The position numbers and the translations under genes are program-made. A model generated the notes under the pieces. The model was not told the DNA's origin and did not search any database. It worked only from the letters and a program-made list of their open reading frames with translations. From Rhizobium sp. ASV20 (GTDB lineage Bacteria; Pseudomonadota; Alphaproteobacteria; Rhizobiales; Rhizobiaceae), in assembly GCF_016429015.1 (NCBI RefSeq), contig NZ_JAELTU010000008.1:19191-83190 (forward strand): 64,000 bases of DNA. The letters are read 5' to 3'. This document shows, piece by piece, positions 56,141 to 59,105 of this stretch; positions within the stretch are counted from its first letter, which is position 1, and each line of letters begins with the position of its first letter.

Positions 56141-57403
56141 TCAATAGCTCCGCTTTCCAATGGCGGCGGCCCAGATTGCCGCCAGCAGCGCGAGGAGAGC
56201 GGATGCGAGCATCAGCGTGAAGAGCATATGGATGGTTGCCGATTGCGCGATGAAAACCCCGCCGACGGAGCCGATGAGCGCGCCGCCGGCGATCCGCATG
56301 GCGGCAGCAAGCCCGGCGGCTGTCCCGACCATATCGGACCGGACCGACATGGCGCCGCTGTTGGCGGCCGGCATGGTGAGGCCATTGCCGATGCCGATGA
56401 AGATGCAGGGACCGAACAGCGCCAGAACCTCAGTCATACCCGAGAGCGACAGGACGAAGCCGATTGCAAGGCCGATGCAGGTCATAAGCCTTGCGACGAC
56501 AAGGATCGTGCCGAGCGGGATTCTTGCGCCGTAGCGTCCGGCCAGATAGCTGCCGAGGATGAAGCCGGCGGGAACCAGGCCCATATAGAAGCCGAGCCTG
56601 GCGCTGGAGCCACCAAGCGTGTCGCCTATCGTCAGTGGCGCGCCGCCGAGGAAAATGTAAAGCACGCCCATCGAGCAGGCCATGCAGAGCGTATAGGCCC
56701 AGAACCGCGCGGAACGCAGAAGCAGCCCATAGGAGGCGAGATAGTTTCCAGGCGCTGCCGAGGATGGCGATCGCGATCCCTTCAGTTCGCGCAGGGACAT
56801 GACGAAGGCGGCGATGCCGAAGATCGCCAGGACGACGAAGCTTGCCCGCCAGCCGAAAAGCTCATCCAGGGATCCGCCGAACAGCGGCCCGACCATCGGC
56901 GCCAGCGCCCATCCCATCGCGAGATAGCCGAACTTGCTGGCCGCTTCACGCTCGTCGGAGGTTTCCTTGATGATGACGAGGGCGACGGAATAGCAGGGAC
57001 CGATGCACGCCTGCATCATGCGGCAGAGCAGGAATATGCCGATATTCGGCGCGAGAATGCAGCCGATCGATGCAGCGATGAAAATGGCAAGCGCCGTCAG
57101 CACGACCGGTCTGCGGCCGAAGCGGTCCGATATCGCTCCCCCGATCGCTTCCAGCAACGCAGTCACGATGGAAAAGCCGGCAACCGAGAGGTTTACGAGA
57201 GCGAAATCGGCATGGAATGCGCCTGCGATCTTCGGCAGCGACGGCAGGATCATGTTGACGGGCAGCACCGCAAGTGCCGAAAGCAGGATGAGTGTCGTCA
57301 ACCTCGGCCGCACTGCGGCCCTTTCCGTCGTTGGGTCGTCAGTTGCCTGCTCTTGGGCTGCTTGCCCGGATGAATGGTCGATGCTGCTTTCGGTGCGCGT
57401 CAT
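56141..57403 (-). CDS. Multidrug MFS exporter (Bcr/CflA-like)
   Basis: 420 residues, twelve hydrophobic segments. VLPVNMILPSLPKIAGAFHA at helix 1, ISDRFGRRPVVLTALAIFIA (loop 2-3 DRxGRR motif) and GYLAMGWALAPMVGPLFGGS (motif C-like) define the drug-proton antiporter group; a short polar N-terminus of about 45 residues precedes it. It probably expels drugs or metabolites. The ATG at 57403 is preferred to the longer frame. Upstream on the same strand lie a 20-residue leader ORF and a terminator hairpin, so expression may be controlled by attenuation. Confidence 0.88.
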   Translation of the reverse strand: MTRTESSIDHSSGQAAQEQATDDPTTERAAVRPRLTTLILLSALAVLPVNMILPSLPKIAGAFHADFALVNLSVAGFSIVTALLEAIGGAISDRFGRRPVVLTALAIFIAASIGCILAPNIGIFLLCRMMQACIGPCYSVALVIIKETSDEREAASKFGYLAMGWALAPMVGPLFGGSLDELFGWRASFVVLAIFGIAAFVMSLRELKGSRSPSSAAPGNYLASYGLLLRSARFWAYTLCMACSMGVLYIFLGGAPLTIGDTLGGSSARLGFYMGLVPAGFILGSYLAGRYGARIPLGTILVVARLMTCIGLAIGFVLSLSGMTEVLALFGPCIFIGIGNGLTMPAANSGAMSVRSDMVGTAAGLAAAMRIAGGALIGSVGGVFIAQSATIHMLFTLMLASALLALLAAIWAAAIGKRSY

Positions 57404-57472
57404 GGGCCTTGTCCGTCGTCTAGATGGAAGGTCTGGGGAGATCTGACGAGGCGTCGCCCGGATTCGGGCAAT

Positions 57473-57496
57473 AAAAAAGGCCCCGTCAGGAGCCTG
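57473..57496 (-). terminator. Attenuator-type terminator upstream of the MFS gene
   Basis: On the minus strand AGGCTCC-TGAC-GGGGCCT forms a 7-bp stem (one G-U) followed by TTTTTTA, 70 bp before the MFS start and 32 bp after the leader-peptide stop. Confidence 0.75.
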
Positions 57497-57527
57497 TTTA
57501 CCGCGCATGGGTGCTTTCGCCGGATGG

Positions 57528-57590
57528 TTACACCATCCTGCCCATGCGCCTTCCTACCACTACGAGAACGAGTGCCGTGTTCATGGGCAT
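57528..57590 (-). CDS. Putative Leu/Val-rich leader peptide
   Basis: A 20-codon ORF translating as MPMNTALVLVVVGRRMGRMV and a stop, with a second in-frame ATG at 57584. Six consecutive Leu/Val codons lie at positions 7-12. Its 3' part lies in a strong hairpin (arms 57541-57549 and 57503-57511, 9 bp perfect; inner arms 57532-57538 and 57522-57528, 7 bp), and a terminator follows. A TTGACC box at 57621-57616 with TAGCTC 17 bp downstream puts transcription start close to the ATGs, so the mRNA may be leaderless, as described for the S. meliloti trpL attenuator. No ribosome site is visible. Confidence 0.6.
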   Translation of the reverse strand: MPMNTALVLVVVGRRMGRMV

Positions 57591-57606
57591 TAGAGCTAAA
57601 CGGAAA

Positions 57607-57629
57607 GCCGCGCATGGTCAATGCGCGGC
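57607..57629 (-). terminator. Hairpin at the end of the amino-acid ABC operon
   Basis: GCCGCGCAT and ATGCGCGGC form a perfect 9-bp stem with loop TGACC on the minus strand, then CTTTCC, 35 bp after the ATPase stop. Its loop and 3' arm overlap the putative leader promoter. Confidence 0.65.
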
Positions 57630-57663
57630 GTATTCTCCGGAGCGAGTACTCTAACAGGCGATT

Positions 57664-58425
57664 CTAGATGTCGTAGCTGTGGCCGGCGTTCAGCGTCGAG
57701 ATGAACTGCTTGGTGCGCTGCTGCGAGGGGTTGGAGAAGACATTGTGTGAAGAGCCGGTCTCGACGATGTTGCCGGCTTCGAGGAACACCACGTTGTTGG
57801 CGATCTTCGAGGCAAGCCGCAGGTCGTGTGTTGCCATGACCATAGTCGTGCCTTCTTTGGCAAGCTTGCCGAGCACGTCGACCACTTCCGCTGCAAGTTC
57901 CGGATCGAGCGCCGAGGTCGGCTCGTCGCAGAGCAGCACGCGCGGCGAGGGCGCAAGCGCGCGGGCGATGGCGACTCGCTGCTGCTGGCCGCCCGAGAGT
58001 GTCGAGGGCCACGCATCCATCTTGTGGGCCATGCCGACCTTGGTCAGCAGTTCCACGGCGCGGGCGCGCGCCTTGTCTGCCGGCCAGCGCAGGACGGTCG
58101 TCAGGCCCTCCATGACATTTTGGATCGCGGTCTGGTGCGGAAAGAGCTGGAAATTCTGGAAAACCATGCCGGTCTGGCGGCGGATTTTCTGGATGTCCTG
58201 CCAGGCCGGCTTTTTGCCTGGCTGAAAGGTGGCTGCCTCATCGCCGATGCGGACTGTTCCGGCGGTCGGGATCTCCAGAAGGTTGATGCAACGCAGCAGC
58301 GTGCTCTTGCCGCCGCCCGAGGGGCCGACGAGCGCCGTCACCGTGCCCTCCGGAAAGACGAGGCTGATATCTTTCAGGATGACGTTTTCGCCGAAGCGCT
58401 TTTCGATATGTGACAGCTCGATCAT
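57664..58425 (-). CDS. Polar amino-acid ABC transporter ATPase
   Basis: 253 residues. Walker [22 protein letters not shown]-loop [20 protein letters not shown], signature [20 protein letters not shown] and [18 protein letters not shown] are those of the GlnQ/HisP/TcyN family. It powers import together with the permease whose stop overlaps its start by 4 bp. Last gene of a binding protein-permease-ATPase operon. Confidence 0.93.
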
Positions 58426-59105
58426 GTCCTTGCCTCCTCCAGCGTGCCGCCGGAGCGGGCGAAGCGGCGTTCGAGGTAGCCCTGCAGCGTCGACAGGAAG
58501 GTGCTGAGCACGAGATAGATGATGGCGGCCTCGATATAGAGGATCAGCGGCTCATAGGTCGTCGCCACGATGCGCTGCGCGGCCTGGAAGAGTTCCGGCA
58601 CGGTGATGGCGGCGGCAAGCGAGGTATCCTTGACCAGCGAGATGAAGGTATTCGACAGCGGCGGCACCGCAACGCGGGCTGCTTGCGGCAGGATGGTGCG
58701 GCTCATGGCCTGGCGCCAGTTCATGCCGATCGAATAGGCGGCTTCCCACTGGCCCTTCGGTACGGAGGAGATGACGGCGCGGATGATTTCGGACGTATAG
58801 GCGCCGACGCTGAGGGTAAAGCCGATCACCGCCGCCGGGAATGCATCGAGCAGGATGCCGAGGCTCGGCAGGCCGTAGAAGATGACGAAGAGCTGCACCA
58901 GAAGCGGCGTGCCGCGGATCACCCAGACATAGAAGCGGGCGACGGCGACCAGCGGCGGCGGCCCGAACAGCCTTGTCACGGCGGTGATGAGGCCGAGCAG
59001 CAGGCCGAGGACGAAGGTGATCAATGTGAGCGGGATGGTGAAGACGAGCCCTGCCCAAAGCAGCGTGCCCAAAGACTCCCACATCAGTTGCAACCAGTGC
59101 TCCAC
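58422..59105 (-). CDS. Polar amino-acid ABC transporter permease
   Basis: 227 residues with five membrane segments. The HisM/GlnP-type features are VWVIRGTPLLVQLFVIFYGL, AYTSEIIRAVISSVPKGQWE and AAYSIGMNWRQAMSRTILPQ (EAA loop). One permease gene only, so the channel is presumably a homodimer. It starts 88 bp after the binding-protein gene, with a hairpin in between. Confidence 0.93.
   Translation of the reverse strand: MEHWLQLMWESLGTLLWAGLVFTIPLTLITFVLGLLLGLITAVTRLFGPPPLVAVARFYVWVIRGTPLLVQLFVIFYGLPSLGILLDAFPAAVIGFTLSVGAYTSEIIRAVISSVPKGQWEAAYSIGMNWRQAMSRTILPQAARVAVPPLSNTFISLVKDTSLAAAITVPELFQAAQRIVATTYEPLILYIEAAIIYLVLSTFLSTLQGYLERRFARSGGTLEEART

What the first reader, a model, noticed from the sequence alone, without database searches (positions are those of the whole stretch)
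57473..57630. Leaderless Leu/Val-rich leader peptide and attenuator upstream of a multidrug MFS gene
On the minus strand, in order: a promoter-like TTGACC-17-TAGCTC embedded in the previous operon's terminator; ATGs within a few bases of the expected transcription start; a 20-codon peptide with the run L-V-L-V-V-V; a strong hairpin covering the peptide end; a terminator with six U; then the Bcr/CflA-type exporter. This is the architecture of ribosome-mediated attenuation, known for trp, ilv and leu biosynthesis genes, but here it would control an exporter. It could sense charged Leu/Val-tRNA (export of branched-chain amino acids or analogues) or translation-inhibiting drugs that stall the leader ribosome. 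An alternative antiterminator pairing was not evident by eye. This is the best candidate in the window for an undescribed regulatory system.
Basis: partly seen in the sequence, partly recalled or inferred. Interest (0 to 1): 0.8.

Follow-up and report, generated by a model that had tools for sequence, protein, structure and literature searches.

The report
Starvation switch captured by an exporter
In front of a predicted exporter gene of a soil bacterium sits a second copy of the RNA leader that elsewhere precedes the gene for making valine, leucine and isoleucine, so this exporter is likely switched on when those amino acids run short.

Summary
At 57463-57582 (-) lies a full-length member of Rfam RF02502 (Atu_C8, filed as an 'sRNA'; 118.2 bits, cut-off 50). 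RF02502 proves to be the leader of ilvB (acetolactate synthase large subunit). All 170 loci read have a short ORF with at least three consecutive Ile/Leu/Val codons. The next gene is ilvB in all 108 non-paralogue loci read (37 same-genus, 60 same-family, 11 other families). In the genus, 27 of 37 genomes have a second copy: before a second ilvB (8) or, as here, before a Bcr/CflA-like MFS gene (19). In 10 of 16 exporter loci tested the first 16 codons still resemble those of ilvB, so the exporter appears to have taken over the leader with the start of the gene it replaced. The likely function is ribosome-mediated attenuation sensing charged branched-chain tRNAs, now controlling efflux. TTGAC lies 35-38 nt before the AUG in 156 of 159 family loci, which implies leaderless translation there, though not in other families. 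Against: no conserved antiterminator was found in folds, covariation or a scan of upstream partners, so the switching step is unresolved. Known kind (ilv attenuator), new variant (exporter).

The parts
57616..57621 (-). -35 box TTGACC, overlapping the loop of the upstream operon's terminator hairpin (57607-57629)
   Evidence: TTGAC lies 35-38 nt before the leader ATG in 156 of 159 Rhizobiaceae loci; such an overlap was found by a simple pattern in 6 of 54 loci scanned
57593..57598 (-). -10 box TAGCTC, 17 nt from the -35; start of transcription predicted at or next to the AUG at 57584
   Evidence: no start site measured
57528..57584 (-). leader ORF, 18 codons + TAA: MNTALVLVVVGRRMGRMV*; codons 5-10 are L V L V V V
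57463..57582 (-). RF02502 (Atu_C8) match, complete (model 1-122), 118.2 bits
57503..57549 (-). hairpin H1: GCGCATGGG (57549-57541) with CCCATGCGC (57511-57503); encloses GGATGG (57538-57533)/CCATCC (57527-57522), with the stop codon in that loop
   Evidence: changes on both sides in 6 of 9 outer pairs; inner hairpin covaries
57473..57495 (-). intrinsic terminator AGGCTCC-TGAC-GGGGCCT with a run of six T
57443..57452 (-). GCCTCGTCAG, complementary to the terminator loop and 3' arm (57489-57480); seen in most loci of the exporter/second-ilvB type; replaces the terminator in the predicted fold of the window's read-through RNA
56141..57403 (-). MFS gene, Bcr/CflA-like, 420 aa; exporter by family likeness only
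   Evidence: PF07690 2.4e-43; TIGR00710 179.3 bits, below its curated cut-off of 200.9; best solved relative 2gfp, Multidrug resistance protein D, 1.9e-20

Best explanation
This is a second copy of the ilvB leader (Rfam RF02502) standing in front of a predicted MFS exporter gene, and it likely works as a ribosome-mediated transcription attenuator that would let the exporter be transcribed when charged Leu/Val/Ile-tRNA is scarce. Shown: a promoter-like pair at a spacing to the AUG that relatives keep, an 18-codon ORF with six I/L/V codons, a conserved hairpin holding the stop codon, an intrinsic terminator, and homology of the whole unit to the leader that precedes ilvB in every non-paralogue locus read across the order. 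Inferred: transcription starts at or next to the AUG, so the leader is translated as a leaderless mRNA. With ample amino acids the ribosome reaches the stop codon and RNA polymerase stops at the terminator, leaving a ~110-nt RNA (the 'sRNA' of Rfam). On shortage the ribosome stalls on the L-V-L-V-V-V run and polymerase reads on into the exporter. The structural step from stall to read-through is not identified. Inferred for origin: a duplicated ilvB locus had its gene body replaced by the exporter while the leader and the first ~15 codons were kept.
For: RF02502 full-length match. The window's genome has two copies, one before ilvB (L001) and this one. The gene called ilvB is acetolactate synthase large subunit (TIGR00118 795.2 bits, cut-off 538.35) followed by the small subunit; the second ilvB also passes (659.3 bits) (one example of each). 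RF02502 is in 193 of 199 family genomes at E 0.001 or less, 187 over the cut-off; the six without are 1.2-2.0 Mb genomes. Downstream gene by tblastn: ilvB in 37 of 37 type-A, 60 of 60 family-level and 11 of 11 other-family loci; second copies in the genus are 19 exporter and 8 ilvB of 27; named pattern hits are 32 exporter, 2 ilvB and 1 neither, of 35. ORF with an I/L/V run of at least 3 in 170 of 170 (the script took the start that gave the longest run). Over the six codons I-L-V-V-G-x, pN/pS in frame against the two other frames: family-level 0.52 against 1.86 and 3.01 (45 distinct sequences); exporter/second-ilvB/named type 0.64 against 1.61 and 1.42; type A 0.33 against 4.63 and 0.92 (6 distinct). 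TTGAC 35-38 nt before the ATG in 156 of 159 Rhizobiaceae loci, against TTGAC in a control 50-nt stretch in 3 of 170. H1 and terminator covary. Found by the protein instead of the RNA: all 19 same-genus genomes with the exporter orthologue (of 37) have the leader; of the 48 best exporter-homologue loci handed out, 21 have it and 27, all 51% identical or less, do not. Exporter codons 1-16 match ilvB codons 1-16 with z of 5 or more in 10 of 16 loci tested (100 shuffles each, best of 11 ilvB partners); codons 15-30 do not (best z 0.6-2.6 in 6 loci). Attenuation of ilvBN by tandem Ile/Val codons is stated for Caulobacter (PMC4117421, passages); a leaderless attenuator in Sinorhizobium is trpL (PMC10117765 and PMC7298713, passages).
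Against: No conserved antiterminator. Minimum-energy folds keep the terminator wherever the printed output shows them (9 sequences, output cut). In RNAs ending before the terminator's 3' arm, the fold pairs the Val/Gly codons with the terminator 5' arm in the window and two type-A leaders, but this candidate (UAGGA with UCCUG in the window) forms in 61% of cells on 32 members and does not exceed shuffles clearly (42 of 500 reach the pairing level, 113 of 500 the covariation score). No upstream 5-6-nt partner of either terminator arm forms in full in more than 41% of 32 rows. The window's own exporter N-terminus resembles ilvB only weakly (z 4.3; 2.5 for its near relative L032). Over nine codons, pN/pS is 0.71 against 0.98 and 2.28 at family level, 0.79 against 0.94 and 1.46 in the exporter type, and 0.88 against 0.82 and 0.62 in type A, so the coding signal is confined to the core codons. 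The leaderless spacing is not seen in other families: TTGAC within 50 nt of the ORF in 1 of 11; there it lies 40-62 nt before the match. 7 of the 11 other-family matches are under Rfam's cut-off. No expression data for this locus. What the exporter carries is unknown.
Confidence: 0.72

Rival explanations
1. A stand-alone trans-acting sRNA, as Rfam files it; the exporter gene merely lies next to it and has its own promoter.
For: Rfam type 'Gene; sRNA'; the terminator is strong and no antiterminator was found; an attenuator-derived sRNA of Sinorhizobium, rnTrpL, acts in trans (PMC7298713, passages).
Against: The same gene, ilvB, follows in 108 of 108 non-paralogue loci read, starting 28-160 nt after the match in 17 of 18 parsed; the core codons show in-frame conservation; no sigma70-like promoter was found by the scan of 56500-58500, though that scan also misses the promoter argued for here. 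An attenuator may do both.
Confidence: 0.1
2. A drug-sensing leader: ribosome-targeting antibiotics stall the leader ribosome and induce the exporter, as for bmrB-bmrCD in Bacillus.
For: Exporter family is multidrug-like; ribosome-mediated attenuation of a multidrug pump by antibiotics exists (PMC4191407, abstract). The run L-V-V-V loosely resembles stalling motifs of macrolide-resistance leaders (recalled, from no call).
Against: The same peptide core precedes a branched-chain biosynthesis gene in 108 of 108 non-paralogue loci, where drug sensing would make little sense; the variable codons keep I/L/V rather than a fixed motif.
Confidence: 0.1
3. A relic: the duplicated leader came with the promoter and now only terminates or leaks at a fixed level, without sensing.
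For: No antiterminator; in one Mesorhizobium locus the gene behind it is interrupted after a few codons (L087).
Against: The leader is kept in 19 of 19 genus genomes with the exporter orthologue, found by the protein; its ORF has a run of six I/L/V codons in 15 of 19 and shows in-frame conservation of the core codons in the exporter type (0.64 against 1.61 and 1.42). The 32 named exporter loci were found by an exact pattern of hairpin and terminator, so only their ORF and promoter spacing count.
Confidence: 0.08

Closest known systems
Rfam RF02502 Atu_C8 (Rhizobiales sRNA)
   Same: Whole model matched above the cut-off; same hairpins and terminator.
   Different: Rfam calls it an sRNA; here 169 of 170 loci read have ilvB or its replacement as next gene, and the ORF is conserved.
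ilvBN leader attenuator of Caulobacter crescentus
   Same: Leader with tandem Ile/Val codons, terminator, ilvB-type gene (PMC4117421 passages; original work of 1994 cited there, not held).
   Different: Another order (recalled); sequence not compared here; controls biosynthesis, not export.
trpL/rnTrpL attenuator of Sinorhizobium meliloti
   Same: Leaderless small ORF starting at the AUG, terminated leader accumulating as an sRNA (PMC7298713, PMC10117765, passages).
   Different: Tryptophan; an antiterminator is described; regulates trpE. Its peptide acts on an efflux operon in trans, not by attenuation of the exporter itself.
bmrB-bmrCD of Bacillus subtilis
   Same: Ribosome-mediated transcription attenuation of a drug exporter through a leader ORF (PMC4191407, abstract).
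   Different: Responds to protein-synthesis antibiotics; ABC pump; no relation of the leaders is claimed or was tested.

Membership tests
Rfam RF02502 (Atu_C8) | covariance-model score above the gathering score | tested here: met
   118.2 bits against 50, model 1-122 complete
ribosome-mediated transcription attenuator | short leader ORF with a run of codons for the sensed amino acid, conserved as protein | tested here: met
   170 of 170 loci; pN/pS 0.52 in frame against 1.86 and 3.01 over the core six codons at family level; weak or absent over nine codons
ribosome-mediated transcription attenuator | intrinsic terminator between ORF and gene | tested here: met
ribosome-mediated transcription attenuator | antiterminator that excludes the terminator when the ribosome stalls | tested here: inconclusive
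   none found in folds, covariation or partner scan; the terminator 5' arm hardly varies within the family, so covariation has little power there
ribosome-mediated transcription attenuator | read-through rises on shortage of the cognate aminoacyl-tRNA | not testable with these tools
   needs reporter assays
leaderless mRNA | transcription starts at the AUG | tested here: inconclusive
   TTGAC to AUG distance of 35-38 nt in 156 of 159 Rhizobiaceae loci implies it; no start site was measured; not so in the 11 other-family loci
Bcr/CflA efflux transporters (TIGR00710) | score above the curated cut-off | tested here: not met
   best NCBIfam family but 179.3 bits against 200.9; MFS_1 PF07690 is met. 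Described as Bcr/CflA-like only

The most novel reading that the evidence does not exclude
An exporter has been wired into the branched-chain amino-acid starvation response by replacing a duplicated ilvB gene behind its own attenuator. The cell would thus detect a poison of branched-chain synthesis or charging by the damage it does (stalled ribosomes on L-V-L-V-V-V) and expel it, without any drug receptor; and the leader would switch by a route that needs no classical antiterminator.
Probability: 0.25. Interest if true: 0.82.

Novelty: new variant of a known kind. Interest (0 to 1): 0.6.

Why it matters
If true, three things follow. A public RNA family now labelled sRNA (RF02502) would be the ilvB attenuator of a whole bacterial order, leaderless in one family and with an unsolved switch. 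An efflux gene would be shown to have acquired amino-acid control by taking over the leader and first codons of a biosynthetic gene, a case of regulatory capture with intermediates still visible. And efflux would be tied to a metabolic starvation signal, which points to inhibitors of branched-chain synthesis or charging as the exporter's substrates and makes that idea testable.

Tried and rejected
Antiterminator: folds of truncated transcripts for 9 sequences and with the transcript cut before the terminator 3' arm for 13, both outputs cut; column-pair covariation on 147 leaders; a named candidate; a scan of upstream partners on 32 members: nothing conserved. The downstream complement GCCTCGTCAG lies after the U-tract, so it cannot act before termination; kept as an unexplained feature. 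Its shuffle z-scores are modest: means -1.54 (19 exporter loci), -1.59 (8 second-ilvB, none beyond -2), -1.38 (26 named), against 0.45 (34 type A) and 0.10 (60 family level). It replaces the terminator in the full fold of 3 of 5 read-through RNAs (window, L032, L039), only partly in L053 and not in L038.

Macrolide-type stalling motif: considered from memory only, not tested. Independent sRNA: see rivals. Literature: the searches listed no paper that I could see to describe RF02502 as an ilvB leader or an amino-acid attenuator on an exporter. Listings were capped, and beyond them I saw only: passages of PMC6234868, PMC3738593, PMC4201532, PMC4117421, PMC10117765, PMC7298713 and PMC2873474; no passage in PMC7486931; abstract and three sections (one in part) of PMC3927594; abstract of PMC4191407. 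The papers most likely to say so (the Agrobacterium deep-sequencing paper and the Caulobacter ilvBN paper) are not held, and a 2004 survey of proteobacterial attenuators is only recalled, so 'not in print' cannot be claimed.

Limits of the counts: the 60 family-level loci (58 genomes) were picked by me, mostly one per genus, from the printed list, which was itself capped. 157 of 159 leaders could be anchored for the codon test. One search used 16 of 51 exporter loci, chosen by me. Only 48 of the exporter homologues listed were examined for a leader.

Full report
What is there. On the minus strand of the window, between an ABC transporter operon that most resembles cystine transporters (below the curated cut-offs; Pfam) and an MFS gene, lies a compact unit: TTGACC-17-TAGCTC, ATGs at 57590 and 57584, an 18-codon ORF (from 57584) MNTALVLVVVGRRMGRMV*, a 9-bp hairpin H1 that encloses a second hairpin with the stop codon in its loop, and a terminator with six T. 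Rfam recognises it as RF02502, Atu_C8, 'Rhizobiales sRNA', full length, 118.2 bits.

What the family is. The window's genome has a second RF02502 copy, which stands in front of ilvB. Among the window's genome and 60 relatives the family rings in 48, 41 over the cut-off; in 199 genomes of the family in 193 (187 over the cut-off), the six others being genomes of 1.2-2.0 Mb; in 289 genomes drawn across the class in only 6. I read 170 loci: 37 type-A copies (one per genome of the genus held), 27 second copies of the same genus, 60 loci from other genera of the family, 11 from other families of the order (4 of these over the cut-off), and 35 named records found by an exact DNA pattern. By tblastn the next gene is ilvB in 37 of 37, 60 of 60 and 11 of 11; of the 27 second copies, 19 precede the exporter and 8 a second ilvB; of the 35 named ones, 32 exporter, 2 ilvB and 1 neither (an interrupted gene, L087). 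One ilvB and one second ilvB were named by NCBIfam as acetolactate synthase large subunit, the first followed by the small subunit.

The ORF is real. All 170 loci have an ORF of 15-21 codons with at least three consecutive I/L/V codons; 167 start with ATG, 3 with GTG (the start giving the longest run was taken). All were found with a model or pattern of the RNA, so presence alone is partly by construction; the substitution pattern is not. Over the core six codons pN/pS is 0.52 in frame against 1.86 and 3.01 in the two other frames at family level, 0.64 against 1.61 and 1.42 in the exporter/second-ilvB/named type, and 0.33 against 4.63 and 0.92 in type A (6 distinct sequences). Over nine codons the signal is weak: 0.71 against 0.98 and 2.28, 0.79 against 0.94 and 1.46, and in type A none (0.88 against 0.82 and 0.62). 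The two codons before the Gly are GUG or GUA in 109 of 114 family-level cases, and the Gly is GGA in 46 of 57, although GUA and GGA make up only 4% and 7% of Val and Gly codons in eight window genes; rare codons at the sensing site are usual in attenuators (recalled). TTGAC lies 35-38 nt before the first ATG in 156 of 159 Rhizobiaceae loci; such a fixed distance leaves the start of transcription at or beside the AUG. For the window copy this points to the ATG at 57584. In the 11 other-family loci TTGAC lies 40-62 nt before the match, so a short untranslated stretch is likely there and leaderlessness seems particular to this family.

The structure is real, the switch is not found. On an alignment of 32 diverse members (A1; 32 of the 170 chosen by me for spread) H1 and the terminator keep 96% of cells paired, with 33 cells changed on both sides; 0 of 500 shuffles reach these values (the structure came from the same alignment). 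The inner hairpin covaries strongly within the family. A classical antiterminator is missing: the terminator stays in the minimum-energy fold wherever a ribosome was placed, as far as the cut output shows, the best candidate pairing, Val/Gly codons with the terminator 5' arm, which does appear in folds of unfinished transcripts, is hardly better than shuffles, and no upstream segment is conserved as a partner of either terminator arm. The terminator 5' arm hardly varies within the family, so covariation there has little power. How a stalled ribosome leads to read-through therefore stays open.

How the exporter got it. Exporter orthologues (at least 55% identical) occur in 19 of 37 genomes of the genus, and all 19 have the leader directly upstream; of the 48 best exporter-homologue loci of two searches, 21 have it and 27, all 51% identical or less, do not. 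In 10 of 16 exporter loci tested, the first 48 nt of the gene align with the first 48 nt of an ilvB gene at z of 5 or more, each best with the second ilvB of Phyllobacterium sp. 628 (up to 11.9); codons 15-30 show no such likeness in the six loci tried. The 27 homologues without the leader align with the window protein only from residue 20-33 on, though several diverged leader-bearing ones also start late there. The simplest history is a duplicated ilvB locus whose gene body was replaced by the exporter behind codon ~15. The window's own N-terminus has drifted and shows this only weakly (z 4.3). A second, more distant exporter in another genus (L194, 48% identical) has its own leader, MRTELFLAVVVGRRMGNAA*, without the extension: perhaps an independent capture or a transfer.

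How it most likely works. By analogy with ilv attenuators (Caulobacter ilvBN, PMC4117421 passages) and the leaderless trpL of Sinorhizobium (PMC7298713, PMC10117765 passages): ribosomes that stall on L-V-L-V-V-V for lack of charged tRNA let polymerase pass the terminator. Homology and anatomy are shown; stall, read-through and amino-acid response are inferred. Why an exporter should respond to branched-chain starvation is open; export of the amino acids themselves in starvation would be wasteful, so expulsion of compounds that cause the starvation is my preferred guess (untested). A drug-sensing leader like bmrB (PMC4191407, abstract) is less likely because the same peptide core serves ilvB across the order.

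A feature of most loci of the exporter/second-ilvB type: behind the terminator lies GCCTCGTCAG or a variant, complementary to the terminator's loop and 3' arm. In one relative (L053) both sides have changed together. In the folded read-through RNA this pairing replaces the terminator in 3 of 5 cases. It is made too late to decide termination; its role is unknown.

Verdict. The sequence family is known (RF02502) but filed by Rfam as something else; the mechanism class is known; its use on an exporter through capture of the ilvB leader is the new part, as far as the searches named under Tried and rejected show.

Noticed in passing
Rfam RF02502; L001, L003-L031, L034, L059-L075, L111-L170: RF02502 is typed as an sRNA gene but precedes ilvB in 108 of 108 non-paralogue loci read and holds a conserved leader ORF: it looks like the ilvB attenuator of the order.
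   Followed up: yes
57443-57452 and 57480-57489; same place in most loci of the exporter/second-ilvB type: A segment after the U-tract is complementary to the terminator loop and 3' arm, with matched changes in L053; no such signal in the main ilvB type.
   Followed up: partly
L035, L038, L045-L050, L093: A second ilvB-like gene behind a second copy of the leader in eight Rhizobium genomes and a Phyllobacterium.
   Followed up: partly
L194 (1341-1500): In another genus an exporter 48% identical to the window's has its own RF02502 leader (MRTELFLAVVVGRRMGNAA*), possibly an independent capture.
   Followed up: partly
57607-57629; also L043, L083, L086, L094, L103: The leader's -35 box overlaps the loop of an upstream terminator-like hairpin; found by a simple pattern in 6 of 54 loci scanned (19 exporter + 35 named).
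   Followed up: partly
L065-L075: In the other families TTGAC lies 40-62 nt before the match, so the leader ORF there probably has a short untranslated stretch in front.
   Followed up: no
L087, about 60-130 nt after the leader: In Mesorhizobium metallidurans the gene behind the leader is interrupted after a few codons by unrelated sequence.
   Followed up: no
G012:C5:266065-267264 (L057, L188): The exporter gene of this relative shows one TAG inside the aligned frame.
   Followed up: no
L072, leader codons 2-5: In this distant relative the start of the leader ORF (GCGCACCACC) can pair with the H1 3' arm in place of the H1 5' arm in the predicted fold; a possible alternative structure not noticed in the others shown.
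   Followed up: no
NZ_CP092346.1, NZ_CP064188.1 and others: Leader plus exporter region also matches megaplasmid-sized Rhizobium and Phyllobacterium replicons: 9 of 27 plasmid records with a match cover at least 80% of the query.
   Followed up: no
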